Virus record (IMG/VR): IMGVR_UViG_3300025674_000024
Span: 21,660-85,659 of that record
Origin: a virus
Reading direction: 5' to 3' (one strand)
DNA length: 64,000 nt
Part shown: piece after piece, positions 4,183-61,550 of the stretch
Position numbering within the stretch: the stretch's first letter is position 1
Layout of the letters: each line of letters begins with the position of its first letter
Translations under genes and position numbers: made by a program
Notes under the pieces: generated by a model
Databases searched by the model: none
The model's input: only the letters and a program-made list of their open reading frames with translations
Told to the model about the DNA's origin: nothing

Positions 4183-4460
4183 CCGCTGAAGAATCCTTTG
4201 CTGTAGAGAGACTCGCCGTAAAGGATGGCTGCAGCTGTGGAATTGGCAACATCCTCCAGGTCAGGTACATCATCGCCACGCTCGGCCATGCGAGTGAAGA
4301 AGGAGATGAGAGCGAAAGCACCATCTAAGTCTGTGAACTCGTCTCCGATGAAGTCTCCGCGACGAATGCCGTAGGGACTTCCATCTTTCGCGAGAGCGAT
4401 GATGATGAAGTTGGAGCCGGGGATGGAGATGGGCTCGGGAAGGTAGAAGAGTTGGTTCAT
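4179..4460 (-). CDS. Hypothetical protein (93 aa) in effector operon
   Basis: ATG at 4460 overlaps the end of the DUF3626-like gene, and its own TGA overlaps the ATG of the GNAT-like gene, so it is translationally coupled on both sides. The segment KDGSPYG near residue 27 weakly echoes the DGSxYG core of the neighbouring tags but lacks the cysteines. The helical C-terminal half may be an immunity or chaperone partner for a neighbour; that is a guess from position only. Confidence 0.7.
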   Translation of the reverse strand: MNQLFYLPEPISIPGSNFIIIALAKDGSPYGIRRGDFIGDEFTDLDGAFALISFFTRMAERGDDVPDLEDVANSTAAAILYGESLYSKGFFSG

Positions 4461-6226: not shown

Positions 6227-6420
6227 TCTTTCTCCACGCTTCGCTTTCTCAACTCCGCCTCTATTGCCTTTCGCCCGCGCTGTGCGAGTTTATCTTTCGT
6301 CTTATTTTCTTTCTCTAGAGAATCCGCTTGACTAGGAAGTCCAAAAATGTATGGATCACCAGCCTCACTTCGACCCATCCTCTCCCGCACTTCTTGAGGT
6401 CTTTTAGGTTGAATTTTCAT
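6223..6420 (-). CDS. Small charged hypothetical protein (65 aa)
   Basis: ATG at 6420 follows the ADP-ribosyltransferase stop by 2 bases and its TGA overlaps the next ATG. The product is Lys/Glu/Arg rich and probably helical, without a tag or membrane segment. Its position between two tagged enzymes would suit a small partner or chaperone, but nothing in the sequence shows this. Confidence 0.6.
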   Translation of the reverse strand: MKIQPKRPQEVRERMGRSEAGDPYIFGLPSQADSLEKENKTKDKLAQRGRKAIEAELRKRSVEKE

Positions 6421-6422
6421 GA

Positions 6423-8054
6423 TTAGACTTCCTCCACGGTGAAGATGTGCATCGGCTCGCCCTCAAATGTTTCAACGCGGTGGTTCGTGTATCTATATTT
6501 TGTGCCGCCAGGAGTTAGTATCTCTTTCTCGCCGCTCTGACCAAAGTTTTCAACTGAAGCTCCGGTTCTATTACGCGTTTCAAAGATAACTCTCGCGCGA
6601 TCTTGCACGACCTTACCGGTATATCCCGCTGAGATAAGGGCACTAGTAGACCACGAAGCCGGTGCGGGATCACTAAAAGTACTCTTAGATTGCGCTGCTG
6701 AAATCATCTGATCTAGCGCTGAACTCGGAATGTTAATTCCACGGTACTTTTCTACGTCAGGATGGTCCATTCGCGAAAGCATTTGATCGATTCTCTGCGC
6801 TTGTTTAGCCCGTATTGAATCGGACCCTGGCTGTTCAACTGCCCGTCTAATCGCTCGATAGTCATTTCGTGTGAAGTCGACGATGGAGTCAATACCTTTT
6901 TGAACTTCACGCTCGTCTCCACCGTATGCCTTAATAAGAGCTTTTGCCTGTTTAGACGTACCTAATTCACCCCATTCTCCAAAAATCGCTGTAGAGTTCT
7001 TATGCGCCCCATTTTGAGAAGGATTAGAGTCAGAATCCAGTAGTTTGATCATACTCCGCGACATTTCATATTTACTAAACCGCTCATTGGGGTCTAATTT
7101 CGCATATTCAATCCGGCGGTCTGCCTCTTCCACCCTGTCTTTAATCGGTTTCAAAAGCGCCTGTCTTTCTGTCCAAGAAGCCCCACTTTCTAAAAGTTTC
7201 ATATCGTTCTCTTTCGCGACTTTTAACTCTTTTTTTGCTTGTGTTCGGTCACGAATTGCCACAGCCATTTCTTTCAGATCTTTCGCATCTCTTAAGTTTA
7301 TGAGATTGTAATAGCGTTCTTGATTCTCATCAGAATCACCGGTAGCTTTTTTGCGAAGTTCGCGAAGACTGCTTATTTGATTGTTTATGCGAATTTGTTG
7401 GGCTTCTGTGAGTTGTTTAGGCGTAGGTCTTGAGAAGATACCTCCCTCAATTGCTTTTCTATCATCAGCGATTCTTTGGAGTTGGTCTCGGATAGTGTAC
7501 ATCCGATCGTCAGCTTCGTCACTTCCCGTCTTTTCAAACTCTTCCTTAGCTGCTTTCATTGCAGCTTTAAGTCGAGTTTCTGTGGAATTGATTAGCTGAA
7601 GAGCCTCTTTTTTCTTCGTCTCAGCGTCAGAACCATCCGTCTCCTCTTTTACCTTTTGTTCCTCTCTATTTAAGTTCCTACGTGCTTTTTTACTCTTTTC
7701 ACCAAGCTCTCCGTCTTTCTTCTCATCCTCAGCCCTACCTTGCTCAGGCTTCTTTTGGCTTTTTACGGGCTTTGGAGCGGGCTTGATCGCGCTAGAGGCC
7801 TCTTGAGTTGCTGACGGTTTGAGCCCAGGTTTTTCTGGGTCCTCCGTCCTAGAAAGTTTCTCAAGTGCTTTCTTTGCCCCGGAGTCTCCAGCTTTTGCTT
7901 TAGCCTGCAACTCTTTAATCTCTCTGGGGCCGACCTCCTTGCCTTTACGGCATTGTCCAGAGGTTCCGTAAAAGCTCCCGTCTGAGCGCTGACATCTTGC
8001 AAAGTCAAGGACTTCTAAAGCTTGCTCTGAAAATGTTGAATAAAGTCTTTTCAT
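6423..8054 (-). CDS. Tagged ADP-ribosyltransferase effector, R-S-ExE class (543 aa)
   Basis: I start this at 8054 (ATGA overlap with the upstream gene) because the first residues then match the GNAT-like effector: FSE at 8-10 and tag C21-C35. A long helical/coiled-coil middle follows. The C-terminal 115 residues carry a mono-ADP-ribosyltransferase signature: Arg 438 in KYRGI, a Ser-Thr-Ser motif at 469-471, and a biglutamate E509-K-E511. ExE enzymes of this class usually modify arginine using NAD. T4 Alt is a known virion-injected ADP-ribosyltransferase that acts on host RNA polymerase, which makes a similar role plausible here. A longer frame upstream exists but overlaps the neighbour heavily and is unlikely to be used. 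Confidence 0.82.
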   Translation of the reverse strand: MKRLYSTFSEQALEVLDFARCQRSDGSFYGTSGQCRKGKEVGPREIKELQAKAKAGDSGAKKALEKLSRTEDPEKPGLKPSATQEASSAIKPAPKPVKSQKKPEQGRAEDEKKDGELGEKSKKARRNLNREEQKVKEETDGSDAETKKKEALQLINSTETRLKAAMKAAKEEFEKTGSDEADDRMYTIRDQLQRIADDRKAIEGGIFSRPTPKQLTEAQQIRINNQISSLRELRKKATGDSDENQERYYNLINLRDAKDLKEMAVAIRDRTQAKKELKVAKENDMKLLESGASWTERQALLKPIKDRVEEADRRIEYAKLDPNERFSKYEMSRSMIKLLDSDSNPSQNGAHKNSTAIFGEWGELGTSKQAKALIKAYGGDEREVQKGIDSIVDFTRNDYRAIRRAVEQPGSDSIRAKQAQRIDQMLSRMDHPDVEKYRGINIPSSALDQMISAAQSKSTFSDPAPASWSTSALISAGYTGKVVQDRARVIFETRNRTGASVENFGQSGEKEILTPGGTKYRYTNHRVETFEGEPMHIFTVEEV

Positions 8055-29155: not shown

Positions 29156-30188
29156 TCAAGCGAACACGTCGTTGATATAGAAGCCAGAACCGAAACCGCC
29201 AGTGGAGCCCATGCCAGTGATGTTCACGGCACGCTCTACGGTGATCTCAGCACGGACCACGCGACGCTCACGGATGTAGTACTCAGGACGAACGGCGGGA
29301 GTGCCGGTCAGCTGGTAGGTGTAAGCGAATGCGGGAGTCGCGGCGTTGGCACCACCTGCGGGCATCACGGAATCGGAAGCGCTTAGCGGGCTGTAGAACA
29401 GCAGCACGGCGTTTTCGGGGAACACCGGAGTCAGAGTGCCGTCATCGGCGAGACGACGACCTTCAGCCACGCGGATACCGCGCTCGAGACCGAAGTAACG
29501 TGCGAGCACGTCCACGTCTATCGAGTCGGCGGTCGTGAACTGAATGCGATCCAGAATCGCGGCGTTGGTCAGCAGGCTGTCGAACACAGCGGTGCCGATT
29601 ACGGCGCCATTGGGACGAATACCGATCTGATTGGATACGGCACGCTTCCAGTTGAGAACGTCGGAGATGGGGTTGTTGCCAGCTGCACCCCAGCTAGCAC
29701 CACCGGAGGAGATGCCGATCGTGGTGGCGTTAGCATCGTAGGTGGTCCAGTTAGCGTAACCGAGTCCCAGGGTACCACCGGCGACAATGTTGCCGGCTTC
29801 GTAGTTACCTGTGGTGCTCACCGCATTGGACACGGTCACCTCGTAGCTGTTCATGAGGCGGGACATCGCGTTGCGTGTCTCAATGGCGCGCAGGTCGACT
29901 TGAGCAGGGCCCTCACCGGCGTTCTCGATCACTTCCTCGGGAAGTTCCCAAGCGATCACTTCTTGCTCGAGAGCGTAAGCGTCGGTGTCGAAGCGGCTTT
30001 GAACGGCGGGGATGTTGGTGCCGTAGGCGCGACGGTAGTCGGAGATAGCGAAGGCTTCCTTGCCGAAGCGCAGGATTTTACCGGCGCGGGTGGGGGTGTC
30101 CACCACAGGGGCAATGAAGTTTGCGATGCTGGTCTCGGGCAGCATGAAGCCCTGAGCCAGGGTTGTGAGAATAGGCAGTATGTTATCG
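29156..30188 (-). CDS. Major capsid protein, 3' exon
   Basis: The frame is open through 30188 to 29156. The first internal Met is at 30145, but in-frame coding (LPILTTLAQGF) continues upstream to a group I intron 3' end. The sequence matches HK97-fold major capsid proteins in length and pattern: an N-arm, an ENAGEGPAQVDLRAIETRNAM spine-helix region, a GAVIGTAVFDSLL P-domain and a YYIRERRVVRAEITVERAVN C-terminal strand. The N-terminus is presumably supplied by short exons at about 31091-31162 and 31418-31431. No other capsid candidate exists in the window. Confidence 0.8.
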
Positions 30189-31095
30189 TAAAAGAGTTTA
30201 GCTTTTACTTCTTACGGTTTTCATTCCCGTAAGTTCAGACTATATCATCATCCCTTGAATACGCCTTTAATCCATCCATCTCCAGGACATTCTTTACTCC
30301 TGGTTCTCTCTACGATACCGTCTTCTGCAATTCGGTACCAGCGAGTTTTTCCTTTAGACATCTTGCCACCTTTAGCGGCAAAATATTTTCCTTGGGGCCC
30401 TCTACCTCTTTCCCAGCCGTCACCCGGACAGGAATGAGATCTTGTAACTTGATCCTCTTTATGCCACCATAGCATTTTGCCAGTAGCTAGTCCGCCCTTT
30501 CGAGAGTTTTCTCGGGCGGTCGGATCATTCTCCATCAGAGCCTTCATAAACTTAGAATTAAGTTTCTTATGCTCTTCAGAAATAGTTTTGTTCTTGTGGG
30601 CTTTCCCTATGTTTTTTCTCCATTCTTCAGAGAAATTTCTCCCTAAGTTTGTTTTTAGACCGTCTAAACATTTTGTTCGTAGGTCTAAGTATTCTTGAGG
30701 AGAAAGTTCTCGTCCGTCTAGATGAGACATAAACCAGTAGGCTTGCTTAAGTTTGACTTCTTCTGGGAAAGCGTCTATAAGCAGCTTATGCGCTTGTAGG
30801 TGCTCTATTGGAGTAAGCCAAACTAAGTTTGAAGTATCGTCAGAACCGCCAAGACATCTTGAAATGATGTGATGAAGTTCGTGATACCCCTCTGGTTTTT
30901 CTTTGCGATAAAGGAAAGATGAAATGAATTCTGTGTACTCAGGGGAGCTGGGCGCTCGTGGGAAGGTTATTGTTGGGTCACTCACTTCCTAGTCGTTGAA
31001 CCTTTTTATCTCAATCTATTTTACAAATAGACACCCGAGATAAACTTGGCTGCTGATTCCCATTTCAGGGTTCCAGCAATTCACCCAGTTCTCGC
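30181..31095 (-). ncRNA. Group I intron B in the capsid gene, with HNH ORF
   Basis: Minus strand order: GGTGAATTGCTGGAA (P/Q-type core) near 31086-31070, GAATCAGCAGC, then TTCAACGACTAGG at about 30998-30986, the HNH gene, then GATGATATAGTCTGAAC (S/P7 core) near 30252-30236 and a paired CTTACGGG...CCGTAAG 3' hairpin. These are the conserved core strings of phage group I introns. Boundaries are approximate. A related intron lies just upstream. Confidence 0.78.
30248..30985 (-). CDS. Intron-encoded HNH homing endonuclease (245 aa)
   Basis: GTG start at 30985 and a TGA embedded in the intron core. HNH signature at about residues 34-80: HELHHIISRCLGGSDD, then TSNLVWLTPIEHLQAH. The C-terminus contains repeated Lys/Gly DNA-binding modules, including two copies of a CPGDGW.[KR]G element. 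Its position in a group I intron within the capsid gene fits intron homing. AT-rich relative to the capsid exons. Confidence 0.85.
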   Translation of the reverse strand: MSDPTITFPRAPSSPEYTEFISSFLYRKEKPEGYHELHHIISRCLGGSDDTSNLVWLTPIEHLQAHKLLIDAFPEEVKLKQAYWFMSHLDGRELSPQEYLDLRTKCLDGLKTNLGRNFSEEWRKNIGKAHKNKTISEEHKKLNSKFMKALMENDPTARENSRKGGLATGKMLWWHKEDQVTRSHSCPGDGWERGRGPQGKYFAAKGGKMSKGKTRWYRIAEDGIVERTRSKECPGDGWIKGVFKG

Positions 31096-31168: not shown

Positions 31169-31419
31169 CGTAAGAGAGTTTAGCTCTTACTTCTTACGGT
31201 TACTGTTCCCGTAAGTTCAGACTATATCATCATCCCGATCGTCTTTGCAGTTGATCGGGAGCCGGGCGCTCTTGGGTGGAGTTATTGTTGGGACTCATCC
31301 ACCTAGTCGTTGAACGTTCCACAGAACCTAAGCCCTCTGTGGCTTCGCTGCTGATTCTCCTTTCAGAGTTCCAGCAATTCACCCGGTGTTCGACGCGGAT
31401 CACTCCACGAAGGAACCTA
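31163..31419 (-). ncRNA. Group I intron A in the capsid gene, ORF deleted
   Basis: Has the same core strings as intron B: GGTGAATTGCTGGAA near 31385-31368, TTCAACGACTAGG near 31315-31302, GATGATATAGTCTGAAC near 31238-31220, and the same 3' hairpin ending in TTACGATAACA. Between the second and third strings lie about 70 bases that still match the first codons of the intron B endonuclease, so it looks like the same intron after deletion of its ORF. Confidence 0.75.
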
Positions 31420-31450
31420 TCGATTCATCATTGACTTTAAGTCTCCTTCT
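31420..31450 (-). CDS. Capsid gene start: RBS and first exon
   Basis: A strong Shine-Dalgarno AGAAGGAGA at 31450-31442 precedes tandem ATG codons at 31431 and 31428. The frame meets TAG after only four codons, just where intron A should begin. A good RBS leading into a four-codon frame is best explained by a very short first exon of the capsid gene. Confidence 0.5.
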
Positions 31451-37165: not shown

Positions 37166-40100
37166 TCAGTTCAGGCCTTGCTGAGAAAGAGTGTCGGGAA
37201 TGCCGCCAATACCGACGCGGACAAGATCCACTTCGATACGCTCCAGTGTGGGTGCGGGAACCACAAACAACTTTACGTTGACGAAGCCGTTCTCCAGGTT
37301 GCCGCCGGGGTTGTTCCGCTCGTCGCAGACCACCTCGAAGGCCTCCGCGGGAGTGGAACCGAACAGAGCACCTGGAATGTAGAAGTTTTCGTACAGAGTG
37401 TTGTGAGCGATCGCGCGGATCTGGTTGAACGTAACGGCCCGTCCGTCGATGATGTTGAAGATTTGACCGTCGAAGGCGGAAAGCATGCTTCCGTAAATGA
37501 CGTTCAGAACCACACGGGTGTTGACAAAGGAGTAGAGAGCCTGCGTCGCATTTCCGCGGTTCACGCGAGTGCGGGAACCCCAGACGAACACAGGACCGAA
37601 CACCTCCCCGGTGTCGGCATCCACGGTGCTGTAGCCAGGCAGCTGACGCAGAGCGTTGAGACCCTGTGGGTTGCTGACTTCCTGCTGCGCGGTAGAGATC
37701 TGGATCTCCACGCCGCGAGCACCGGCCAGGCTGTACTTCGCTCCTGCGGGAGGCAGTCGGAAACCGGAAGCCTCGTCGCGGTAGCGGCGAAGTGCGAGTC
37801 CTGTGACGTAGGAAGTGGGTTGGATGAACACACCCACGTCGTTCTTGACGTAGGGAGCGTAGTAGGCGAGGAAGCCTTGCGTGGTCGAGTAGGACAGAGC
37901 CTCCTCAAACAGACGGTTGTGGCTGTCCATGCCCTTCTCGATGACGGCCATCTGGGGAACGCCGCCGTTGTTGACTCCGCGGAGCGCCTCGCTAACGAGA
38001 TCACCAGCGGTAACGGCGAGGAAGTTCCACAGGTTGTTGGGAACGTCAGCCTCGGGCTCGAGCAGCTCAGCGGTCACGTAGGCACCGTAGAGGGTGTCGT
38101 AACTCTGACCAGTCTGCAGCACGTAGTGGATGAAGATGTCATCGAACGACGTGTTGGCCTGCTCACCTGTGCTTAGGGGCACGCAGACGAAGTTGTTCTC
38201 GCCGGCGAAGTCCTGAGCGGGGTTCAGGGGGACGGCAAGATCGTCTTCTGTGTACTGGAAGGTGTAGGGGTTGGAGGTCGAGGTCACCAGGAATTCCACA
38301 CCACCGGCATTATCCACACCGGCATTGGTGATGGTGACGGCGGTACCGGCCACAGCATCAGCGGCGGACTCAGCGAAAGAGATGGTGTTCGCATCGACCT
38401 TGATCACAAAGTAGGTCGCGTCGTCGGTCAGGCCACTGGCGAGAGTAGCCCCCGTAGCGGTGTTCACCGTCACTTGGTCTCCGGTCAGGTAACCGTGGGA
38501 TGTGATGGTAACTTCGTCAGCGGCGAAGGTCACGTTGGCCGCAGCTACCTCGTACACCGGCACACCCTCGGGAGTGCGGCTGTAAGAGAAGCGAACGTCG
38601 GTGCTGATATCAGCGGCGTAAGCAACGCCGTAGGGGTCGTTCACGCCGGTCTGAATTGCCACATTGGCCTCGTCGCGAACACCGGCCACGGCGAGAGTCA
38701 CGTCGAGTTGGTACTTGCGACCGCGGATGTAACGCAGGACTCCGGCATCGCTGAACTCACCACCATCCAGACCCACGGCCATCTTCTTGTAGAAGCGGAC
38801 GGGAGTGGAGGTCGTGATAGCGGAGGTCGGGTAGTCCGCGAAGGCCTCGGAAGCAAGATCAGAAGCGGAGCGAGCGAGACGGAATAGGTTCCGGTCGATC
38901 TGCTCAGCGAAGTACACGTCGGAGGACGTAGCCGTGGTGCCTTCGAAGATGGTCTCCGTGGCGGTGGCGATATCTCCGTCGAAGTACAGCTTGTCAGCAG
39001 TCTTCACAGGGTGGTTAGCCGAGAAGATGAGGGCGTCACGGCCGCTCATGATCACGGATTGAGTAGCGGCTCCGGCAGGGTTCAGAACCGTGGTGGAATC
39101 GGTACCCGCGGTAGTCAGAGTGATCTGAGTGCCGGCGACTGCGTTGGCGAGCGAAGTGGCGAGCCGGATGGTGTTGTCATCCACCTTGATCACAAAGTAC
39201 TCTGTGCCAGTGCTGAGACCCGTGGGGGAAGCAGAACCGTCGGAGGGCAGCAGGTAGTAGTTGATTGCATCGCCGGTCGAGTAACCGTGAGCGACCACGG
39301 TGATCTCGTCAGTGACGGTGTCTACATCAGCGGCGTTGAAGTAGAACAGCGTCAGACCGCCGCTGAAGACAGCGGAGGAGGGATCGGTCACCTGACGAAC
39401 GAGACCCTTGAAGTCGTGCTGAGCAGTGGGCTTCTGGAGAGTACCAGGCAGGTGTAGAGTGTTGAACGACACATCGTCAGCACCGCCGTTGGCTTCGACC
39501 AAGCTGGAGGTCTTGCCCTTGATCTCTACGGTGAATTCCCATGCGGGATCAGCGTAGGTGAACACGAGCATGCCGCCACCATGGGGAGTACCACCGGTCG
39601 TCAGATCGATCGGCTGGTCAGCGGAAGCGCGGGCCTTAGATGTGGCGAGCTTGATCTGTGTGCTCGACAGCGTGTTGTCGATGTCGCTGGCGATGACGTA
39701 GAACGAACCTTCCAGAGGCTGGCTGGTGACACCAGTGGGAGTGTCAGAGTACAGCGGAGCGGTAGGCAGAGGCGTGTTCTCGAAGATTGCGACGGACACC
39801 AGAGTACCTGAAGGCAGAGCATCCACGTCCCACTCTTCGGCGAGAGTGATAACGTCGGTCGCGGGAGTTACGGCAACGTCAGCGCGGACCTTCTGGTCAT
39901 CCTTCATCGCGTAACGGATACCGTCGGCGATGGCGGAGTTGGCGCTGAGGATTCCGCTAGCGGGATCGTAGTTGGCCTGGGTGAAGTTGAGTGGGCTGGT
40001 GTCAGTCCACTCGTAGATCACGTTGTCCACGAGGTAGAGACCGCCGGTCTCGAAACCGTTGGAGGGATTGTGATCCTCGAAGTTCTTGTAGGTCTGGATG

Positions 40101-41062
40101 TTGGTCACGAAGTACGGACCGCAGTCCACCAGAGCCATCCACTTGTGGTCAGCGTCAGAGCAGACTTCCTCCATCGTCTGACCCAGGTTCACCCGGTCGG
40201 ACTTACCGAACTTACGGAAAGCCGGAGGAGCGATCATGTAGCCCTGAGGCAGGTTGGTACCGTCAAACGCGGTACGAGCGGTCTGCACGTAGTCAGCGAT
40301 CGTCTCTTCGCTCTCCTCCACGTTGCTGATGCCGTAGCCGGCAGCGGCGAGGATGTACTGAGCACCGGTGATGGCGTTGGAGTTCACCACTTCTACGACG
40401 GAGTTGAACACTCTGCCAGTGATGTGGAAAGCCGCTTGGTCTCCGCTTTCCGCGGTCTTACGGAGGTAAGCACCGGCGGAGATGTCGCGGTTAGCGTCGA
40501 TGGCGTCCACGACGGCGTCGCGCATCGCCTTGGAGATCAGCAGGTTGTTGGAATCATTTCCAGCAACGTAATCTACAGGTGCGGTCACCTTCACGCCAAG
40601 CCAAGCACCAGCGGAGTTCACGTCACCCAGTTGGATGCCGTTGATCTCGAGCTTGATGTAGAACTCGTCGCCTTTGGAGACCTTCTTAGGAGCGGCAACA
40701 CCGTTGTCGATGTTAGCGCTAGGATCGAAGGAAACACCGACGATGATGGAGGGGATGCCCACGCGAGTCACGCGAAGGTCGCCCACGCCGCACTGCTGGA
40801 AGAAGGCCTTCACAGCGTAGTACGAATCGAGCTCAGCGCCACTGGTCGGCAGTTCGCCGATCAGGTTCTCGTACTCGTTCAGGCTCGACACGAAGATCGG
40901 GCGGTTGTACGGGAAGGTTGCCACAGATGCGGTCTGAGGAGCCTCAACCATCATGTAGACGGTGCTGAAGCTAGCAACCGAAGCACGAGAAGCTACAGCC
41001 GATTCGTAGATAAAAGTACCCGGAGCACCGCCACGGGCGCCCCCAAGGGAAATTGTTGCCAT
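37166..41062 (-). CDS. Giant tail sheath protein with inserted beta repeats (1298 aa)
   Basis: The start GGARGGAPGTFIYES and the C-terminal 350 residues (NLWNFLAVTAGDLVSEALRG, SRTRVNRGNATQALYSFVN, QIRAIAHNTLYENF) are contractile sheath-like. Typical sheaths are 380-700 aa; the surplus here is a central block of repeated beta modules with HGY.TGD, T.YFVIKVD.NTI and A..G.. LTTAG units, at least two clear copies (about residues 575-665 and 870-950) and two diverged ones. These would decorate the tail outside. Follows the LysM protein. Confidence 0.85.
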   Translation of the reverse strand: MATISLGGARGGAPGTFIYESAVASRASVASFSTVYMMVEAPQTASVATFPYNRPIFVSSLNEYENLIGELPTSGAELDSYYAVKAFFQQCGVGDLRVTRVGIPSIIVGVSFDPSANIDNGVAAPKKVSKGDEFYIKLEINGIQLGDVNSAGAWLGVKVTAPVDYVAGNDSNNLLISKAMRDAVVDAIDANRDISAGAYLRKTAESGDQAAFHITGRVFNSVVEVVNSNAITGAQYILAAAGYGISNVEESEETIADYVQTARTAFDGTNLPQGYMIAPPAFRKFGKSDRVNLGQTMEEVCSDADHKWMALVDCGPYFVTNIQTYKNFEDHNPSNGFETGGLYLVDNVIYEWTDTSPLNFTQANYDPASGILSANSAIADGIRYAMKDDQKVRADVAVTPATDVITLAEEWDVDALPSGTLVSVAIFENTPLPTAPLYSDTPTGVTSQPLEGSFYVIASDIDNTLSSTQIKLATSKARASADQPIDLTTGGTPHGGGMLVFTYADPAWEFTVEIKGKTSSLVEANGGADDVSFNTLHLPGTLQKPTAQHDFKGLVRQVTDPSSAVFSGGLTLFYFNAADVDTVTDEITVVAHGYSTGDAINYYLLPSDGSASPTGLSTGTEYFVIKVDDNTIRLATSLANAVAGTQITLTTAGTDSTTVLNPAGAATQSVIMSGRDALIFSANHPVKTADKLYFDGDIATATETIFEGTTATSSDVYFAEQIDRNLFRLARSASDLASEAFADYPTSAITTSTPVRFYKKMAVGLDGGEFSDAGVLRYIRGRKYQLDVTLAVAGVRDEANVAIQTGVNDPYGVAYAADISTDVRFSYSRTPEGVPVYEVAAANVTFAADEVTITSHGYLTGDQVTVNTATGATLASGLTDDATYFVIKVDANTISFAESAADAVAGTAVTITNAGVDNAGGVEFLVTSTSNPYTFQYTEDDLAVPLNPAQDFAGENNFVCVPLSTGEQANTSFDDIFIHYVLQTGQSYDTLYGAYVTAELLEPEADVPNNLWNFLAVTAGDLVSEALRGVNNGGVPQMAVIEKGMDSHNRLFEEALSYSTTQGFLAYYAPYVKNDVGVFIQPTSYVTGLALRRYRDEASGFRLPPAGAKYSLAGARGVEIQISTAQQEVSNPQGLNALRQLPGYSTVDADTGEVFGPVFVWGSRTRVNRGNATQALYSFVNTRVVLNVIYGSMLSAFDGQIFNIIDGRAVTFNQIRAIAHNTLYENFYIPGALFGSTPAEAFEVVCDERNNPGGNLENGFVNVKLFVVPAPTLERIEVDLVRVGIGGIPDTLSQQGLN

Positions 41063-42843: not shown

Positions 42844-43734
42844 TCAGTTGACGTTGACCTTGATCGCTGGGTGGGGATCATAGTCGGTTAGGATGAAGTC
42901 GTCCAAGGTTAGATCCTTAAGAGTGCGGCGTTGGAGCCATTCATCAGAGAGTCTCGCTTGGCACTCATCCTTCCACGGGAGTTTGAGCATCTGCTCAACG
43001 AGATGGTAGCAGTTCTCATAAATATGAGAATTTGCGCTTGGCATATAGACAAACCGAGCGGTCTTGTCCGTGCAAGCCGCAACAACTTTGAGCATGATCG
43101 CGTAGCGAGCGATGTCAAGAGGGAAACCGACAACCATGTCGTTTGACCGAGCGGGAACCATCAGGTCTAGCCAACCATCCTTCGCGGGCATGAACTGCAT
43201 ACCGATGTGACACGGCGGGCAAGCCGGATCGATAACGGTCGGATTGTGAGTGATGACGGTCGCTTGCCGAGTGTTCGGGAAGTGAGTCAGGGTGATGATG
43301 GCGTCCTGCAGCTGGTCAACAGACCGATCGGTCTCCAAGACCTCGTTGGGCATCTCCATCCCAGAGGCGGACGGTGGCCACTGACGCCACTGACGACAGT
43401 AAGCGGAGGCGCCAAGCTCACCGTCCTTGTCGGCTAGGAAGTCCCAGAAGTGCTTGGCGGGGCCCAGCGCATCGACGTTGGTATTGAACCCAATGTCGAA
43501 GAGGAATTCCCTACAGGTGTTCTTCCAGGGCAGTTTGCGGAGGCGAGTCAGAGGGAATCCCTCACGGAGATCCACTCTCACGGAACAACCAAAAGCTGCT
43601 CGAGTCTCGCCGTTACGACCTTCAAAAGTATCTCCCGCCTCCATCAGAGCACGGAGATAGTTGGCGTAGATGCGATCCCAATTCCCAGAGATGATGGACT
43701 TTCCGTTGAATGAAAGAGAGTGTCCGGCGTTCAT
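42844..43734 (-). CDS. Thymidylate-synthase-family enzyme, probably dCMP hydroxymethylase-like (296 aa)
   Basis: Clear ThyA fold family: catalytic PPCH with Cys 175, Arg/Ser/Asp in RSND at 196-199, HIY at 237-239 and a C-terminal YDPHPAIK. The residue that in thymidylate synthase is the uracil-reading Asn (E. coli N177) is Asp 207 here, in GFPLD. T4 gp42 dCMP hydroxymethylase also has RSND, GF and this Asp, and that residue is known to select cytosine. I infer action on dCMP (5-hydroxymethyl- or methyl-dCMP). A nucleotide kinase and a DNA polymerase follow on the upstream side, suiting modified-base synthesis. Confidence 0.85.
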   Translation of the reverse strand: MNAGHSLSFNGKSIISGNWDRIYANYLRALMEAGDTFEGRNGETRAAFGCSVRVDLREGFPLTRLRKLPWKNTCREFLFDIGFNTNVDALGPAKHFWDFLADKDGELGASAYCRQWRQWPPSASGMEMPNEVLETDRSVDQLQDAIITLTHFPNTRQATVITHNPTVIDPACPPCHIGMQFMPAKDGWLDLMVPARSNDMVVGFPLDIARYAIMLKVVAACTDKTARFVYMPSANSHIYENCYHLVEQMLKLPWKDECQARLSDEWLQRRTLKDLTLDDFILTDYDPHPAIKVNVN

Positions 43735-44747: not shown

Positions 44748-44911
44748 GAGAGGGGAAGGGAGAGTTGGACGGGATGGGATGGGGAACAGCGGACTTTATC
44801 TAGGAGAAGCCTCTTCATTGTATCCTGATCAACTTCGGAGATCTCACAGGCTGTGATAAGGTTGCAGTGTCCCGAATAGAGAGCCGTCAGGGCCCTTTCT
44901 ATCTTTGTCAA
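44744..44911 (-). CDS. Small hypothetical protein, TTG start (55 aa)
   Basis: TTG at 44911 overlaps the polymerase TGA, with AAGGG just upstream as RBS. The product has a helix-turn-helix-like stretch (ALYSGHCNLITACEISEVDQ). Coupled between the polymerase and the next small gene. A longer frame exists but would overlap the polymerase by about 140 bases. Confidence 0.5.
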   Translation of the reverse strand: MTKIERALTALYSGHCNLITACEISEVDQDTMKRLLLDKVRCSPSHPVQLSLPLS

Positions 44912-47832
44912 AGCAGTCCCTTCTCGATCAGGTCTATGCGGGTCTTGAGCTTCTTGACCCACCCGTTCTCCGCCATCTGCAGCATAGAGTACTCTGACCC
45001 GTTGGGCTCTTCCGACCCGTCTGGGTTGGATGGAGTCACAGTGCACTCACTGGGAGACTTACGGAGCCGGTCGTCAATAGCGACCGAGGAGAAGAAAGCT
45101 CGAGAGAGCGGTACGTCGTTGATCCCCACACCCGCTTGGAACCTTGCCCACGAGTAAAGGTGGGCCATCTGGAAAGTTACGGAGAAGACCTCCGCATACT
45201 TCTCAGGGACCATGAACCACATCTCATCGTGAATGGACAGGATGAACTGCGCTGGGATCTTGTACTTGCGAGCCAACCAGTGAGTCGCGGTGAGAATCAC
45301 AGCGAGCATCTCCGCACCCGACGACTGGATTGTCCAGTTAATGCGACCTGTGTGAAAGTCATCTCCCACCGCAGAGGGACGCAGAGCGGTCGAGATCTTC
45401 GTCCCGAGGCAAGGCAGAGTGGGAACCTTGGCCCTTAGCGCGATGCCCTCCATGAAGTTATAGCAGCCGCTGTCGCTGCCTCCTTCGTAGTACCCGTCTG
45501 GGCTCTTACGACCTTTCTTGAAAGCCAAAGCTTTGGTGCCGTACCGACGGAGCTCCTCGGATCCGCGATCCTTGTACTTCTTCTGGATGGTGTTAGCTAT
45601 GGTTCTCACGCCCGCGCCGTACAGCATAGCGAAACCTACACCCTTAGCCGTGTCTCGGTCAATGCCGATTGCACTCGCGAGCTTAGTGTGCGCGTCGGTA
45701 CCCTTCTCTTTGGACCCAGCGAGGACGGTATGCGCCATCGGAGATGCACCCACGAATCCTCCCTCCCAGGAGTCTGCATAGATGCTTGCGATCTGCAGCT
45801 CCTGACCGTCAAAGTCAGCGCCTACGATCTTCCAGCCCGGAGGACACTGGACCCGAGTCTTGAGCTCAGTGCCGATTCTCCAGTTCTTCGTGGAGCACAT
45901 GGTGACCATGAGGGATTCCACAGTCCGGCGAGTCACAGTCCCGTGAGCGATGATCTCGGGCATTATCATGTTCCAAGCACCACCGTGAGGGTTCTCGACC
46001 TCTAGGAAGATGCGGTCCATGACACGCTTACGAACCGAAGTCCAGTAAGACGTGGCGTTAGCAATGTCGAGAGCGCGCTTAGCCTCGGGAATATCGCTGC
46101 TGAGCCGACCGTTCTCCATGTCCACGAGAAAGTCTTTGGACAACAGCACACCGACGTTCTCACCGGTACCCTTAGGATGAGGGATCTTCTGCAGCTTACC
46201 TTCAACGTCGCGGTAGCACCAACCGTCTCCCTTGATGTTCTCGATCGGAGACCCCTCCCACTTGAGCTTCAGCAGGAAGTGAGAGACCGTGGCTTTCGTC
46301 GTGACCTTCTTGTCAGAGTCCGTCAGGTACTCGGAAGCCCACTTTGGTTTGAAAGCGTACTTGCCTGTGTAAGACCGAGGTGTCCAAACTAATTGGGACA
46401 ACCAAGGATCTTTCTTAGCCCACTCGTCCGCATTGTGCCTCCACACGTGCTCTTGCTTATCAAACCCACGGAGAACGTCCGTGAACTTGACCGTCTTCTT
46501 GTGGCCAAGACTGGCAAGAGCTATGCAAGTCTCAGGATCTTCCTCGAAGAGCTTCTGGGCGGTGACAATGTCCTTATCCAGTTCTGTGTTCCACTCCGCT
46601 ACGTACTTTTGAATGAGAGAGCGACAGATGTCCGTCATCTCCTGAGCGTGAGCGTGAAACACTTCTTCAGTGTGAGAGATCCAATCCGACCACTGCGTGG
46701 AGATCGGGATGCGCGATCCGTTGAGGAAGTAGTGACCGGCAATCCCCACCTTTGAGGGAGTCGCGTTAAGGTACTTTGGCCAAAGGGCTTGGAAGAGCTC
46801 AGTCGTGTAGAAGGCGTCCTTCATCGCGTACTCGAGCAGGTCCCGACGATTTGCGAGTTGGTGCATCTCCGTGGCTTTCACGAAGACGTTTCGGATCTCC
46901 TTGTCGGCATCCTCCATGCGATGGACTTCCTCGCCGAAGTATTCCCTCACGGCCGCGACGTGGAAGTTGTAGACATTCACCAGGGCATTCGTGGAACCTT
47001 CGCTAGCCCATCTAGGACGGAACTGAAGTTTCTTCTTCTCTTCCTCGCTGAGTTCCTCGGGATCCTTGCCCGCGAGGACATAGAGCCACCTCTGGCCCGA
47101 CGCGAGGCCGGAGACCGCGACGTGAGCTGAGAGCGTGTCAAAGTAGAAGTTCTCCGGCTCGCTTTCAGTAAGCGTGTAGCCGTCACGAGCGCGAACGCGA
47201 TCATAGGAAATGTTATGACCGACAACAAAACTTCCTTTGCCAATAGGTATGAGGTCATACTGGGTCCATTCCTCTTGCGGTAGAGTTGGGTCGCACATCT
47301 CCGCTGCGAGCCATACATAAGAGGCCTTAGCAGAGAAGCAAGTACCAATCACTGGGAAAGCGCCTCCGACCACGAAGGTCTCAGTATCATACGTGAACGC
47401 TTTCTCGAGAGGATGCGGAACCTGCTCTGTGATAAACTTCTTCCCGTCCCACTCGTATCGGGTCCATCCGGGCTGGAAGATGAAGTCGTCGTACCCGGGG
47501 CACTTAGGAAGCTTTGCTTTGGAGAATTCTTCTGCTTTGGTAAGATACTCGTCAAGAAACTCTCCGGCCATGTGTTCGAAGTGATCTTTGATGTCGTTTC
47601 CCACAAGATCTGGGAACGGAAAATCACCGTCGTAGAGGTTCTCGGGATAGTCCACAGGAACTGGGACATCGAACCTACTTAAAAGCCGCCGCGACCGTTC
47701 GAGCGTGCTGCTCTTAACCGTCGGGCGGCTCAGGTTGCCGAAAAGCTTCTTATGAAGAAAATCGCTGAGGACGGGATAGCCGTGTTCGTTCTTCATAGAC
47801 GATGCAGTCATCCGATAAATTGTCGATTCCAT
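44908..47832 (-). CDS. Family A DNA polymerase, mitochondrial Pol gamma-like (974 aa)
   Basis: 3'-5' exonuclease motifs (TYDTET; VGHNISYDR; YAMKDAFYT) precede the polymerase motifs A (GADFDGQEL, Asp 673), B (R726..K730......Y738) and C (IHDE, 868-870). The finer details are those of Pol gamma: GAD.D.QEL.IAS, IHDE, and the C-terminal [SA]FFS.V.ID..LRK...TPSNP run. The arrangement and length fit Pol gamma rather than E. coli Pol I or T7 polymerase. It is presumably the replicative polymerase of the phage. The start at 47832 follows the upstream stop by 8 bases. Confidence 0.92.
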   Translation of the reverse strand: MESTIYRMTASSMKNEHGYPVLSDFLHKKLFGNLSRPTVKSSTLERSRRLLSRFDVPVPVDYPENLYDGDFPFPDLVGNDIKDHFEHMAGEFLDEYLTKAEEFSKAKLPKCPGYDDFIFQPGWTRYEWDGKKFITEQVPHPLEKAFTYDTETFVVGGAFPVIGTCFSAKASYVWLAAEMCDPTLPQEEWTQYDLIPIGKGSFVVGHNISYDRVRARDGYTLTESEPENFYFDTLSAHVAVSGLASGQRWLYVLAGKDPEELSEEEKKKLQFRPRWASEGSTNALVNVYNFHVAAVREYFGEEVHRMEDADKEIRNVFVKATEMHQLANRRDLLEYAMKDAFYTTELFQALWPKYLNATPSKVGIAGHYFLNGSRIPISTQWSDWISHTEEVFHAHAQEMTDICRSLIQKYVAEWNTELDKDIVTAQKLFEEDPETCIALASLGHKKTVKFTDVLRGFDKQEHVWRHNADEWAKKDPWLSQLVWTPRSYTGKYAFKPKWASEYLTDSDKKVTTKATVSHFLLKLKWEGSPIENIKGDGWCYRDVEGKLQKIPHPKGTGENVGVLLSKDFLVDMENGRLSSDIPEAKRALDIANATSYWTSVRKRVMDRIFLEVENPHGGAWNMIMPEIIAHGTVTRRTVESLMVTMCSTKNWRIGTELKTRVQCPPGWKIVGADFDGQELQIASIYADSWEGGFVGASPMAHTVLAGSKEKGTDAHTKLASAIGIDRDTAKGVGFAMLYGAGVRTIANTIQKKYKDRGSEELRRYGTKALAFKKGRKSPDGYYEGGSDSGCYNFMEGIALRAKVPTLPCLGTKISTALRPSAVGDDFHTGRINWTIQSSGAEMLAVILTATHWLARKYKIPAQFILSIHDEMWFMVPEKYAEVFSVTFQMAHLYSWARFQAGVGINDVPLSRAFFSSVAIDDRLRKSPSECTVTPSNPDGSEEPNGSEYSMLQMAENGWVKKLKTRIDLIEKGLL

Positions 47833-53204: not shown

Positions 53205-53741
53205 TCACGCTGCGACGGCTTCTTTGGTCTCTACGGGAGCGTCAGCATCCCGCTTAGCTTGCAAATACTGCACCACGCGAGCGGGAGTGGAGGCCTCGTA
53301 GGGATCGTCAGAGGCGTTATCACGCTTGCCCTCTTCGACACCGGACCACTCCAGCTCGCCGTTGTTCACGACAATAGCGTAGCGCCAGCTGCGGATCGCA
53401 AAACCGAGGTTGGTCTTCTGCACAGCCATGCCTGCCGCGGCAGTGAAAGCACCGTTACCGTCGGGCAGAGCTTTGACTTTCTGGATGCCGAGGGACTCGA
53501 ACCACGCGTTCATCACAAAAGCGTCGTTCACCGACAGGCAGTACACTTCGTCGACATCGAGCGCGCGGATCTCGTCGTAGGCGGCCTCGAAGCCCGGGAG
53601 TTGCTGCTCGGTGCAGGTGGGAGTGAAGGCGCCGGGCAGTGAGAACACCACCACGCGCTTACCAGAAAAGATCTCCTTGGAGGTGCGAGTCTCGAACTCG
53701 CCGCCCTCGCGGAAGATGAAATCTACGATGGGAAGGTTCAT
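53205..53741 (-). CDS. Type II peroxiredoxin, thiol peroxidase (178 aa)
   Basis: PRX5/type II family: GAFTPTCTEQQLPGF with peroxidatic Cys 43, and CLSVNDAFVMNAW. It reduces hydroperoxides using thiol donors. Residues 104-118 and the glycine pattern are normal for the family, so the enzyme is probably active. This is a host-type gene, common in cyanobacteria; in a phage it could protect replication and photosynthesis during infection. Likely an auxiliary metabolic gene gained by transfer. Confidence 0.93.
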   Translation of the reverse strand: MNLPIVDFIFREGGEFETRTSKEIFSGKRVVVFSLPGAFTPTCTEQQLPGFEAAYDEIRALDVDEVYCLSVNDAFVMNAWFESLGIQKVKALPDGNGAFTAAAGMAVQKTNLGFAIRSWRYAIVVNNGELEWSGVEEGKRDNASDDPYEASTPARVVQYLQAKRDADAPVETKEAVAA

Positions 53742-54648: not shown

Positions 54649-54774
54649 GGATTCGTCACGGGTGGGTCGCTCAGGCGGCGACGGCCACGCGCTCGAAAGC
54701 TACGATGTTGTTGGCGCTTATGCCAGAACCCTCTCGCTCGTCGAAAGCCTTTCACCCCCGAGTGAATAAGATCT

Positions 54775-54810
54775 GCGCAGTAGTTATCACTAGAGTAGTA
54801 ACTACCGCGC
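54775..54810. repeat. 12-bp inverted repeat hairpin
   Basis: GCGCAGTAGTTA paired with TAACTACCGCGC around a 12-base loop, one G-U pair. Not followed by a T-run in either direction, so not an evident terminator. Lies in the structured non-coding block. Confidence 0.6.
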
Positions 54811-54823
54811 TAAACCTATTCAT

Positions 54824-54878
54824 GGAGATGCGGAGAGTCGAACTCCGGTCCGAACGAGATTGTTGCTCCGAAGAGCAA
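54824..54878 (-). ncRNA. tRNA 3'-half-like element and UUCG hairpin
   Basis: Minus strand: a 6-bp hairpin TTGCTC-TTCG-GAGCAA (54878-54863), then a perfect T-arm CGGAG-TTCGACT-CTCCG (54847-54831) and CATCTCC. The 5' half of a tRNA is missing, since an apparent complete tRNA-like unit ends directly before. Possibly a tRNA fragment. Confidence 0.4.
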
Positions 54879-54955
54879 TTCGCGGGGCGAGGACTCGAAC
54901 CTCGCAATTCTATGCTATGTGCATAGCGTGTTACCGTTCGGTGCACTACCCACGA
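54879..54955 (-). tRNA. tRNA-like, anticodon CAT (degenerate)
   Basis: 77 bases fold into a cloverleaf: acceptor TCGTGGG/CCCGCGA with one G-U, U8-A9, D-arm with GTG/CAC, anticodon stem CTATG/CATAG with loop CACATAG, and T-arm CGAGG-TTCGAGT-CCTCG. Position 33 is A instead of the near-universal U, and one extra base sits before the acceptor 3' strand, so function is uncertain. CAT would read Met or, if lysidine-modified, Ile. Confidence 0.55.
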
Positions 54956-59111: not shown

Positions 59112-59123
59112 TACTATACCACA
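59112..59123 (-). promoter_or_regulatory. Early-type promoter TGTGGTATAGTAG
   Basis: Extended -10 TGG-TATAGT overlapping the stop region of the topoisomerase gene, 25 bases before the ATG at 59088. Confidence 0.5.
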
Positions 59124-61105
59124 ACTTCCTCCGCTTTGGCAAGTTTGCTACCCTTGCCGTGCACGGGTCGAGCTTTGAGAGTCTTAGCGGAACAGACCTT
59201 AGGCTTCTTCCGCTTGGATTCGAACTTCAGCTCGTATGAGTCTGTGCCGATGTGGAGTAGTTCAGCGCCCTCAGGCAACCAACGCTTGCCCCTCGAGGTC
59301 GTTCGTAGCAGTTCATCCCACGGAATAATATTTCCAAAGATGCCCTCTGCAGATTTCCACACCGCGACAATTGGATCTTGAGGTAGATTCGTTGTTGAAC
59401 CTCTCAGGAGAACTTTCGTCGGAGAATCTGACAGTGGACCGCGATGTCGAGCGTTAACCTTATAGAAGTAGCCGTTGTTGCAGACGAAAACCATCTTTTG
59501 ATCGTCCGGGATCACAAAGTTGGCTCCGCGAGGTGCCTTGAGTTGTGTGAGAATACCCTTCTCCTCGTCGACCATGACGTAGCGGGGCTTTGGACCGCTC
59601 TGAGCGAGTTGGACTTTCCGTCCCTCGACCTTCACTGTCTCCACAGCGACCTCCTTGGGAGGATCTATGCCTTCGCTGCGACGAGCGTTCCCATGTCGCT
59701 CCGCGAGTTCCTCCACCTCACTAACAATGTACTCTCCGCGCTTTTTCTCCGAGGAAGTCAGAGAAATGATCTCCTTGATGCGCTTCTGCACATCCTTGGC
59801 TTCCTGTTGCAGCTGCTTGTCATCCAGCTTCGTCAATTGAGCAAGTCGCATGTCGAGGATGGCGTCCGCCTGCCTTTCCGTGTACTGCATCTTGACCAAG
59901 CGGGCTTTAGCATCAGCACGTTCCTTAGCGAGTCGGATCTGCGCGATGACCTCGTCGATCATCGTGATCGCGGTGATCAAGCCTTGGACCACCTCAAGCC
60001 TACCGCGTCGCTTCTCGAGTTCGGCTTTGAGAGAAGCTAAGAGGCGCTGGTCCCGCCATCCCGCCCAGCGGATGAGCATGTCGTGCGGCGCGAGCTGCAC
60101 CGGCTTCAAGTTGTCGATGACAAGATTCCGTGCGGAAAACTTCGTGTCAAGCGACGTGTTCTTGAAGATTTCAGCTCGAGCACGTGCTTCGTCGGCACTC
60201 GCCTTAAGAACGACCACTAGGCGGATCCCGCTGCGGTCCGTCTCGTCTCGGACGTCTGCGACCGTAGTGATTTTGCCTTTCTCAATCCCTTCTTTGATCT
60301 GATCCCCAACCTGCTCCGTGTTGGTGTGTAGAGGCAGGTTCGTGAACACGAGAGCGGTGCGCTTGGACTTCTTCCCGTAGTCGATCTGCTCGGAGGAGCA
60401 GTGGGCGCGCATGCGGACGGAGCCGACACCTGTGTTGAGGTATTCGACGAGACCTTCGTCCTTGACCACGTGGCATCCCGTAGGGAAGTCCGGAGCGAGA
60501 GAGTTCTTCGCCGTGATCATGTCATCATCAACAAGAGCTCGGAGAGCCTTGGCGACGCCGCGGAGGTTGTGAGTGGGGATCTTTGTAGCAAAGCCTACTC
60601 CAATCCCTTCCGCTCCGTTAAGCAAGATAAGAGGGACTCTAGCGTTTAGTTGCACCGGCTCCTGTAAGCTCCCGTCATAGTTAGGACGAGTGACCCAGGT
60701 ATCTGAGTCTTGAAGCAAAGCATCCCAGGCAAACTGGGAGATCTTTGACTCAGTATATCTCGGAGCAGCGGCGTTGTCCGTCGGAGACCCGCCGTTCCCA
60801 TGGATGTCAATAAGAGGGTGATTGTTGGTCCACCATGCGGCAGCCGTAACCATTGCGCCGTATGCACCGCCGTGAGGATGATACTTACCGGTGGTCTCGC
60901 CTTCAACACGAGCGCACTTCATATAGCGCCCGTCAGGACGAAGGTTAAGGGCCTTCATCGCGGCCATGATGCGCCTAGTGACCGGCTTTAAGCCGTCATA
61001 AAGATCTGGGATTGCCCGACCAACGAGCACAGCCATGCTGTACTCAAGGTACGCGGACTTCATCTCTTTAACGAGCCCTGCTTGGACAGTTGTTCCTTCA
61101 GTCAT
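59114..61105 (-). CDS. Type IIA topoisomerase subunit A, GyrA/ParC-like (663 aa)
   Basis: DNA-cleaving subunit: catalytic Tyr 117 in AAPRYTES, helix region TGKYHPHGGAYGAMV, and the tower and coiled-coil segment with LAQLTKLDDKQLQQEAKDVQ. The C-terminal beta-pinwheel is short (about 150 residues), so it may be closer to ParC or T4 gp52 than to full GyrA. It needs an ATPase (GyrB-like) partner, which is not in this window. Start at 61105 overlaps the HNH TGA by 8 bases; earlier codons duplicate that gene. Confidence 0.9.
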   Translation of the reverse strand: MTEGTTVQAGLVKEMKSAYLEYSMAVLVGRAIPDLYDGLKPVTRRIMAAMKALNLRPDGRYMKCARVEGETTGKYHPHGGAYGAMVTAAAWWTNNHPLIDIHGNGGSPTDNAAAPRYTESKISQFAWDALLQDSDTWVTRPNYDGSLQEPVQLNARVPLILLNGAEGIGVGFATKIPTHNLRGVAKALRALVDDDMITAKNSLAPDFPTGCHVVKDEGLVEYLNTGVGSVRMRAHCSSEQIDYGKKSKRTALVFTNLPLHTNTEQVGDQIKEGIEKGKITTVADVRDETDRSGIRLVVVLKASADEARARAEIFKNTSLDTKFSARNLVIDNLKPVQLAPHDMLIRWAGWRDQRLLASLKAELEKRRGRLEVVQGLITAITMIDEVIAQIRLAKERADAKARLVKMQYTERQADAILDMRLAQLTKLDDKQLQQEAKDVQKRIKEIISLTSSEKKRGEYIVSEVEELAERHGNARRSEGIDPPKEVAVETVKVEGRKVQLAQSGPKPRYVMVDEEKGILTQLKAPRGANFVIPDDQKMVFVCNNGYFYKVNARHRGPLSDSPTKVLLRGSTTNLPQDPIVAVWKSAEGIFGNIIPWDELLRTTSRGKRWLPEGAELLHIGTDSYELKFESKRKKPKVCSAKTLKARPVHGKGSKLAKAEEVVV

Positions 61106-61550
61106 TACGTGTTGAAATGAAACGACCTCGGCTATCACGCAGCCGTTCTGAGAATCTCCCTGCGTCGTAAGCCGCTTGGATGTTTTCTGAGTTGTTGACC
61201 CACTCTAAGTTGGACACATGATTGTTTTGCTTATCATGGTCTACGTGGTGAACAATCGGCTTAGCCTCCGCTAAGGGGACCCAGGCACGAGCTGTGACTC
61301 GATGAGAAAGATCTCCAGTAATCAGCCTGATGTAGCCTTTTGTGTTAGGAGATCCTTTGACCCACTTAGCTCGTCGAAACTCATGTGTTGTGATGAACAC
61401 GGAGTTCCAACGGTCCCAAACTTGCTTCTCCGTTAGAAAAGCGGGTTCTGCTACTCGGCCATCCAGAGTAGACCAAAGAGAGGTTTCTTGGTCCAAAGCC
61501 CATGGTCCAGGGTCCAAGTCAAGAAGACTGTCCGTGTCGTAGAGTCTCAT
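61098..61550 (-). CDS. HNH homing endonuclease, NUMOD4/HNH_3-type (150 aa)
   Basis: C-terminal HHVDHDKQNNHVSNLEWV forms the HNH core and an NSENIQAAYDAGRF helix completes the usual mobile endonuclease unit. The N-terminal half has a NUMOD4-like ITTHEFRRAKW region. Sits immediately upstream of the topoisomerase gene, which is a frequent homing target in phages. Confidence 0.82.
   Translation of the reverse strand: MRLYDTDSLLDLDPGPWALDQETSLWSTLDGRVAEPAFLTEKQVWDRWNSVFITTHEFRRAKWVKGSPNTKGYIRLITGDLSHRVTARAWVPLAEAKPIVHHVDHDKQNNHVSNLEWVNNSENIQAAYDAGRFSERLRDSRGRFISTRND

What the first reader, a model, noticed from the sequence alone, without database searches (positions are those of the whole stretch)
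44908..47832. Phage DNA polymerase closely resembling mitochondrial Pol gamma
Motif A GADFDGQEL.IAS, motif C IHDE, and the C-terminal AFFS.V.ID..LRK...TPSNP run correspond, by my knowledge of animal POLG, to its polymerase domain down to the tail. Mitochondrial replication enzymes (RNA polymerase, Twinkle) have T7-like phage relatives; a Pol gamma-like enzyme in a phage bears on where the mitochondrial replicase came from.
Basis: partly seen in the sequence, partly recalled or inferred. Interest (0 to 1): 0.88.

Follow-up and report, generated by a model that had tools for sequence, protein, structure and literature searches.

The report
Cyanophage polymerase of mitochondrial Pol-gamma type
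A tailed virus that probably infects cyanobacteria copies its DNA with an enzyme of the same family as the polymerase that copies our mitochondrial DNA; such phage enzymes have been known since 2011, so this is a good new example rather than a discovery.

Summary
ORF 44908-47832(-), 974 aa, is a full-length homologue of mitochondrial DNA polymerase gamma: Pfam DNApol_Exo 196 bits; human POLG and yeast Mip1 are the only strong PDB hits (yeast 659 bits with the family profile, bacterial Pol I at most 50); the predicted fold matches POLG (TM 0.77, E 6e-54) and only weakly T7 polymerase (TM 0.38). All exonuclease and polymerase residues are intact.

The kind is already known: cyanophages A-HIS1/2 (Chan 2011), S-TIM5, S-CBWM1 and Mic1 carry it. 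The window belongs to an 85.7-kb IMG/VR contig of the S-CBWM1 lineage (Pol 49.7%, capsid 63%, terminase 51% identical).

Phage and eukaryotic enzymes form one clade (100/100), but the window's clade is not the sister of Pol gamma (rejected, p=5e-7); a Mic1-like clade is (98/100). The data do not settle whether the gene passed from phage to mitochondrion (p=0.33 and 0.04 in two data sets). The animal-type spacer is missing. Eleven Pol-gamma phage records, four of them deposited as complete genomes, lack Twinkle-type helicase and T7-type RNA polymerase, so they do not supply the mitochondrial trio together.

The parts
44908..47832 (-). Pol-gamma-type family A DNA polymerase, 974 aa
47380..47388 (-). 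Exo I motif D149-x-E151 (TYDTETF)
   Evidence: D and E in 28 of 28 relatives with letters there; aligned to POLG
47200..47214 (-). Exo II motif N207-D211 (GHNISYDR)
   Evidence: N and D invariant in 29 of 29 relatives
46816..46830 (-). Exo III motif Y335-D339 (YAMKD)
   Evidence: Y and D invariant in 29 of 29 relatives
46408..46593 (-). Insert in the spacer (residues 414-475) found only in the window's own subclade: about 61 aa, against 10-24 aa in all other phage relatives
   Evidence: Alignment A7; confidently predicted, helical
45799..45822 (-). Motif A G671-E678, catalytic Asp673
   Evidence: D invariant in 29 of 29
45619..45657 (-). Motif B R726-Y738; Phe734 at the place of the POLG tyrosine (Y951)
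   Evidence: F in 18 and Y in 11 of 29 relatives
45223..45231 (-). Motif C H868-D869-E870
   Evidence: HD invariant in 29 of 29
45022..45099 (-). C-terminal AFFSSVAIDDRLRK...TPSNP run shared with animal and yeast Pol gamma
59114..61138 (-). DNA topoisomerase II / gyrase A-type subunit, upstream of the polymerase gene as in S-CBWM1
   Evidence: PF00521 371.6 bits; same position in S-CBWM1
42844..43734 (-). Thymidylate synthase family protein, nucleotide metabolism next to the polymerase
   Evidence: PF00303 172 bits

Best explanation
The gene encodes the replicative DNA polymerase of a contractile-tailed cyanophage of the S-CBWM1 lineage. It is a single-chain enzyme of the Pol gamma branch of family A: an N-terminal DEDD proofreading exonuclease of the mitochondrial type, a short spacer/thumb, and a palm-fingers domain ending in the Pol-gamma-specific C-terminal run. 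Shown here: homology, complete catalytic residues, fold, phylogenetic clade and phage context. Inferred: that it copies the phage genome in a cyanobacterial host, with proofreading, without a POLG2-like partner, and together with a helicase that is not of the T7 gp4/Twinkle type. Phe at the POLG Tyr951 position predicts resistance to dideoxynucleotides, as in E. coli Pol I and unlike T7 polymerase or POLG (residue rule from my own knowledge of Tabor and Richardson's work).
For: Pfam PF18136 196 bits and PF00476 43 bits; phrog_22619 'DNA polymerase' 778 bits; POLG the only class of PDB sequence hit with a single query and far ahead of Pol I with a profile (659 against 50 bits); AlphaFold model pLDDT 86.7 and pTM 0.83 with Foldseek E 6e-54 and TM 0.77 to human POLG against 1e-12 and 0.38 for T7 polymerase; catalytic residues invariant in 29 relatives; clade 100/100 with yeast and human Pol gamma; nearest isolate S-CBWM1 for polymerase, terminase and capsid with the same gene order; cyanobacterial-type tmRNA tag.
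Against: No biochemistry exists for this protein. The record is incomplete (85.7 kb, linear), so helicase, primase and clamp cannot be listed with confidence. The host is inferred, not shown: the only cellular assembly carrying a near relative is a Microbacteriaceae MAG, although there the gene lies on what look like mis-binned phage contigs.
Confidence: 0.94

Rival explanations
1. It is an ordinary phage PolA (T7-like or Pol I-like) whose motifs look like POLG only because all family A enzymes share them.
For: T7-like cyanophage polymerases do appear as weak hits (24-28% identity over the palm, E about 1e-6 to 1e-8), and T7-like enzymes are the nearest outgroup (98/91).
Against: DNApol_Exo domain and full-length match to POLG; fold TM 0.77 to POLG against 0.38 to T7; clade with POLG at 100/100.
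Confidence: 0.02
2. The window's phage lineage is the direct phage source or closest living relative of mitochondrial Pol gamma.
For: It is a full-length homologue at 32-33% identity to yeast Mip1.
Against: A window-clade plus eukaryote group is rejected (AU p=0.0015; p=5e-7). Mic1-like L175 is 42% identical to yeast Mip1 and is sister to the eukaryotes at 98/95 and 98/100.
Confidence: 0.03
3. The gene moved the other way: an early eukaryotic Pol gamma was captured by cyanophages and then diversified.
For: The tree in which all phage enzymes form one group apart from the eukaryotes is not rejected on full-length data (p=0.33) and only borderline on the polymerase domain (p=0.043).
Against: Four deep phage clades lie in phages of different virion types and hosts; the best trees nest the eukaryotes inside the phages; the family is absent from the sampled bacteria except a mis-binned phage. 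Cyanobacteria, not eukaryotes, are the hosts.
Confidence: 0.2

Closest known systems
DNA polymerase gamma of Synechococcus phage S-CBWM1 (NC_048106, gp120)
   Same: 49.7% identical over 99% of the length; same place between topoisomerase II and the neck/tail genes; Phe at the Y951 position; permuted tmRNA in the same genome
   Different: The window's enzyme has a 61-residue spacer insert that S-CBWM1 lacks, and lacks S-CBWM1's insert of about 40 residues between motifs A and B
Pol gamma of Microcystis phage Mic1 and L175-like contigs
   Same: Same domain plan and fold family
   Different: A separate clade, sister to eukaryotic Pol gamma; Tyr at the Y951 position; in most members the gene is split by an insert at motif A, a group I intron in L256
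Mitochondrial DNA polymerase gamma (human POLG, yeast Mip1)
   Same: Exonuclease and polymerase motifs, C-terminal run, fold
   Different: Animal spacer insertion absent: Exo III to motif A is 336 residues here, 348 in yeast, 493 in human (numbering); Phe instead of Tyr951; about 32% identity to yeast
T7 DNA polymerase (gp5)
   Same: Family A, exonuclease plus polymerase, nearest outgroup in the tree
   Different: No DNApol_Exo-type exonuclease; fold similarity only TM 0.38; T7 works with gp4 helicase and an RNA polymerase whose families are absent from Pol-gamma phages

Membership tests
DNA polymerase gamma (family A, mitochondrial type) | Mitochondrial-type DEDD exonuclease domain (PF18136) | tested here: met
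   196 bits against a cut-off of 26.7; Exo I-III residues conserved
DNA polymerase gamma (family A, mitochondrial type) | Family A motifs A, B, C with catalytic Asp pair | tested here: met
   D673 and D869, R726, K730 invariant
DNA polymerase gamma (family A, mitochondrial type) | Common descent with animal and fungal Pol gamma to the exclusion of T7 and Pol I | tested here: met
   100/100 clade
DNA polymerase gamma (family A, mitochondrial type) | Pol gamma fold | tested here: met
   TM 0.77, E 6e-54 against 8v5r; T7 at TM 0.38
Animal POLG (with POLG2) | Long spacer with accessory-interacting subdomain | tested here: not met
   336 residues from Exo III to motif A against 493 in human; human 468-532 and about 589-708 (5c52 numbering) have no counterpart
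Animal POLG (with POLG2) | Dimeric POLG2 accessory subunit | not tested
   No search for a POLG2-like protein was made, and the record is incomplete
Eukaryotic Pol gamma | Mitochondrial localisation | not testable with these tools
   Phage gene; not applicable to a bacterial host
Cyanophage Pol gamma family (S-CBWM1, S-TIM5, A-HIS, Mic1) | Pol gamma homologue in a tailed phage genome of a cyanobacterial phage lineage | tested here: met
   Phage structural genes; S-CBWM1 nearest isolate for three genes
Cyanophage Pol gamma family (S-CBWM1, S-TIM5, A-HIS, Mic1) | Cyanobacterial host | tested here: inconclusive
   tmRNA tag ANNIVAFERVAVAA is of cyanobacterial type (tag comparison from memory); no host proven
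T7-like phage DNA polymerase | Clusters with T7/P60/Syn5 polymerases | tested here: not met
   T7-like rows form their own 98/95 clade
Bacterial Pol I | N-terminal 5' nuclease domain and Pol I-type exonuclease | tested here: not met
   Only DNApol_Exo and DNA_pol_A found above cut-off

The most novel reading that the evidence does not exclude
Mitochondrial Pol gamma of animals and fungi was acquired from a cyanophage-like virus of the Mic1/L175 clade. The eukaryotic enzymes nest inside a phage family of at least four deep clades, to which the window adds a well-populated branch. The gene was acquired apart from Twinkle and the mitochondrial RNA polymerase, since Pol-gamma phages carry neither.
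Probability: 0.45. Interest if true: 0.7.

Novelty: new member of a known kind. Interest (0 to 1): 0.32.

Why it matters
The origin of mitochondrial Pol gamma, which is not alpha-proteobacterial, is still open. The phage family containing this protein is its closest known non-eukaryotic kin, so extra deep branches help to root it. The results here sharpen the question in two ways: the Mic1-like clade, not the S-CBWM1/S-TIM5 clades, is the phage group nearest to eukaryotes; and Pol-gamma phages lack the T7-type helicase and RNA polymerase, which argues against a one-step take-over of the mitochondrial replisome from a phage of this type. For this window alone the result is confirmatory.

Tried and rejected
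Looked for a phage group even closer to eukaryotic Pol gamma with yeast-led and L175-led profiles in IMG/VR: only the Mic1/L175 clade turned up.

Looked for cellular bacteria carrying the gene: only a Microbacteriaceae MAG, with the gene broken over two contigs, several PolA types in one bin and a tmRNA hit on the same contig. Rejected as host evidence and read as mis-binned phage.

Looked for Twinkle-type helicase (PF03796) and T7-type RNA polymerase (PF00940) in 11 Pol-gamma-bearing records: none. The searches work, since T7, P60 and Syn5 score strongly.

Rejected the reading as ordinary PolA (trees, fold). Rejected the window's clade as sister of eukaryotic Pol gamma (AU tests).

Full report
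What is there. The window is bases 21660-85659 of an 85,659-base virus record from IMG/VR. ORF 44908-47832 on the minus strand codes for 974 residues. Pfam finds the 'DNA mitochondrial polymerase exonuclease domain' PF18136 (196 bits, residues 70-354) and DNA_pol_A PF00476 (43 bits, residues 656-885). Against the PDB, a single-sequence search returns only mitochondrial Pol gamma chains (best E 6e-104). A profile of ten phage relatives gives yeast Mip1 659 bits in one unbroken stretch, human POLG about 608 bits, and bacterial Pol I no more than 50 bits.

Catalytic residues. In 29 diverse relatives the Exo I (D149, E151), Exo II (N207, D211) and Exo III (Y335, D339) residues, and the polymerase residues D673, R726, K730, H868 and D869, are conserved without exception where the sequence is present. 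The position of POLG Tyr951 is Phe734 here; it is Phe in 18 and Tyr in 11 of the 29. The Mic1 paper had noted the absence of this tyrosine in S-CBWM1 and A-HIS (PMC7156551). From my own knowledge of family A enzymes, Phe at this place predicts discrimination against dideoxynucleotides.

Fold. AlphaFold2 with 29 aligned relatives gives mean pLDDT 86.7 and pTM 0.83. Foldseek against the PDB ranks 36 Pol gamma chains first (best E 6e-54, TM 0.77), then T7 DNA polymerase and Klenow at E about 1e-12 and TM 0.35-0.38. In a library of viral structure models the only strong matches are a 959-residue and a 608-residue protein that the tool does not name; their lengths equal those of A-HIS2 polymerase and Mic1 ORF86. 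The distance from Exo III to motif A is 336 residues here, 348 in yeast and 493 in human (numbering), so the spacer insertions that carry the accessory-subunit contacts of animal POLG are missing. The window's subclade has its own 61-residue insert at 414-475, where other phages have 10-24 residues.

Known relatives. Among 50,697 phage records only A-HIS1/2, S-TIM5 and its three relatives, S-CBWM1 and Mic1 match over full length (11 records cover at least 80% of the query), then T7-like polymerases weakly. S-CBWM1 is nearest for polymerase (49.7%), terminase (50.6%) and major head protein (63.4%), and it has the same order topoisomerase - polymerase - neck/tail - terminase - PhoH. Pol gamma in cyanophages was first reported in 2011 (Chan et al., cited in PMC7156551, PMC3914683 and PMC4928673), and PMC4928673 cites it as support for a phage origin of mitochondrial DNA polymerase. 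The finding is therefore a new member of a known kind. IMG/VR holds many more: 160 confirmed hits in one scan and 177 in another.

Phylogeny. With Pol I, T5-like, SPO1-like and T7-like outgroups on the polymerase domain, the phage enzymes plus yeast Mip1 and human POLG form one clade (100/100), sister to the T7-like enzymes (98/91). With T7-like outgroups and 857 columns there are four phage clades: A-HIS; S-TIM5-like; S-CBWM1-like including the window (100/100); and Mic1/L175-like. The eukaryotes are sister to the last (98/100). AU tests reject the eukaryotes as sister of the window's clade (p=5e-7), of the S-TIM5 clade (4e-8) and of the A-HIS clade (4e-4). They do not reject all phage enzymes as one group apart from eukaryotes (p=0.33), though an earlier test on the polymerase domain gave p=0.043. 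On the polymerase domain alone with T7-like outgroups, the order of the clades is unresolved when both eukaryotes are present, and euk+Mic1 has 94-95 bootstrap when either is left out. Eukaryotic sampling is only two sequences, read from PDB alignments, and both have long branches. Direction of transfer is therefore not settled here.

Replisome context. Twinkle-type helicase (PF03796) and T7-type RNA polymerase (PF00940) are absent from 11 Pol-gamma-bearing records, including four deposited as complete phage genomes (S-CBWM1, S-TIM5, A-HIS1, Mic1), while T7, P60 and Syn5 score strongly in the same searches. The Mic1 helicase is an SF1 UvrD/RecD-like protein, and A-HIS1 has a DUF5906 protein annotated as primase. 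So the three phage-like enzymes of mitochondria are not found together in the Pol-gamma phages known so far.

Host. The phage carries a permuted tmRNA with the tag ANNIVAFERVAVAA; S-CBWM1 has one with ANKIVAFHRQAVSCA and two near relatives share the window's tag. From memory this ANNIV-F-R style is cyanobacterial. A Microbacteriaceae MAG holds a 76% relative, but its contigs look like mis-binned phage. A cyanobacterial host is likely but not proven.

Verdict. The system is known, the protein is a new member, and the evolutionary inference is supported only for the family as a whole.

Noticed in passing
window 54671-54869 (-): Permuted (two-piece) tmRNA, Rfam RF04321 57.5 bits, tag ANNIVAFERVAVAA, next to a predicted tRNA-Met at 54879-54955; also present in S-CBWM1 (72 bits) and in near relatives. 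Two-piece tmRNAs in aquatic phages are already known (PMC9004378).
   Followed up: partly
window 31193-31449 (-): Group I intron (RF00028, 60.3 bits) followed downstream by a homing endonuclease ORF at 30248-30985 (phrog_655) and the major head gene at 29156-30145; the interrupted gene was not identified.
   Followed up: partly
L256 5767-6070; L009 about 4822-5119; L252-L254 about 5813-6707; L255 about 4282-5175: In Mic1-like phages the Pol gamma gene is interrupted exactly after the motif A codons GADVDS, by a group I intron in L256 and by inserts of about 300-900 bases in the others; L175 and L251 lack it.
   Followed up: partly
L175 4001-6607: Uncultured virus polymerase 42% identical to yeast Mip1 over its length, the phage sequence nearest to eukaryotic Pol gamma seen here; its motif B reads INYSRRYNAG.
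   Followed up: partly
window 37166-41062 (-): Unusually long tail sheath protein (1298 aa) with sheath similarity at its C-terminus and repeats resembling baseplate wedge and tail fibre proteins in the middle.
   Followed up: no
window 53205-53741 (-): Redoxin/AhpC-TSA peroxiredoxin-like protein in the phage (91.6 bits), a possible auxiliary metabolic gene.
   Followed up: no
L093, L094 (CALGUV01 contigs): Pol-gamma phage contigs binned into a Microbacteriaceae MAG and so held in a bacterial species genome set.
   Followed up: partly
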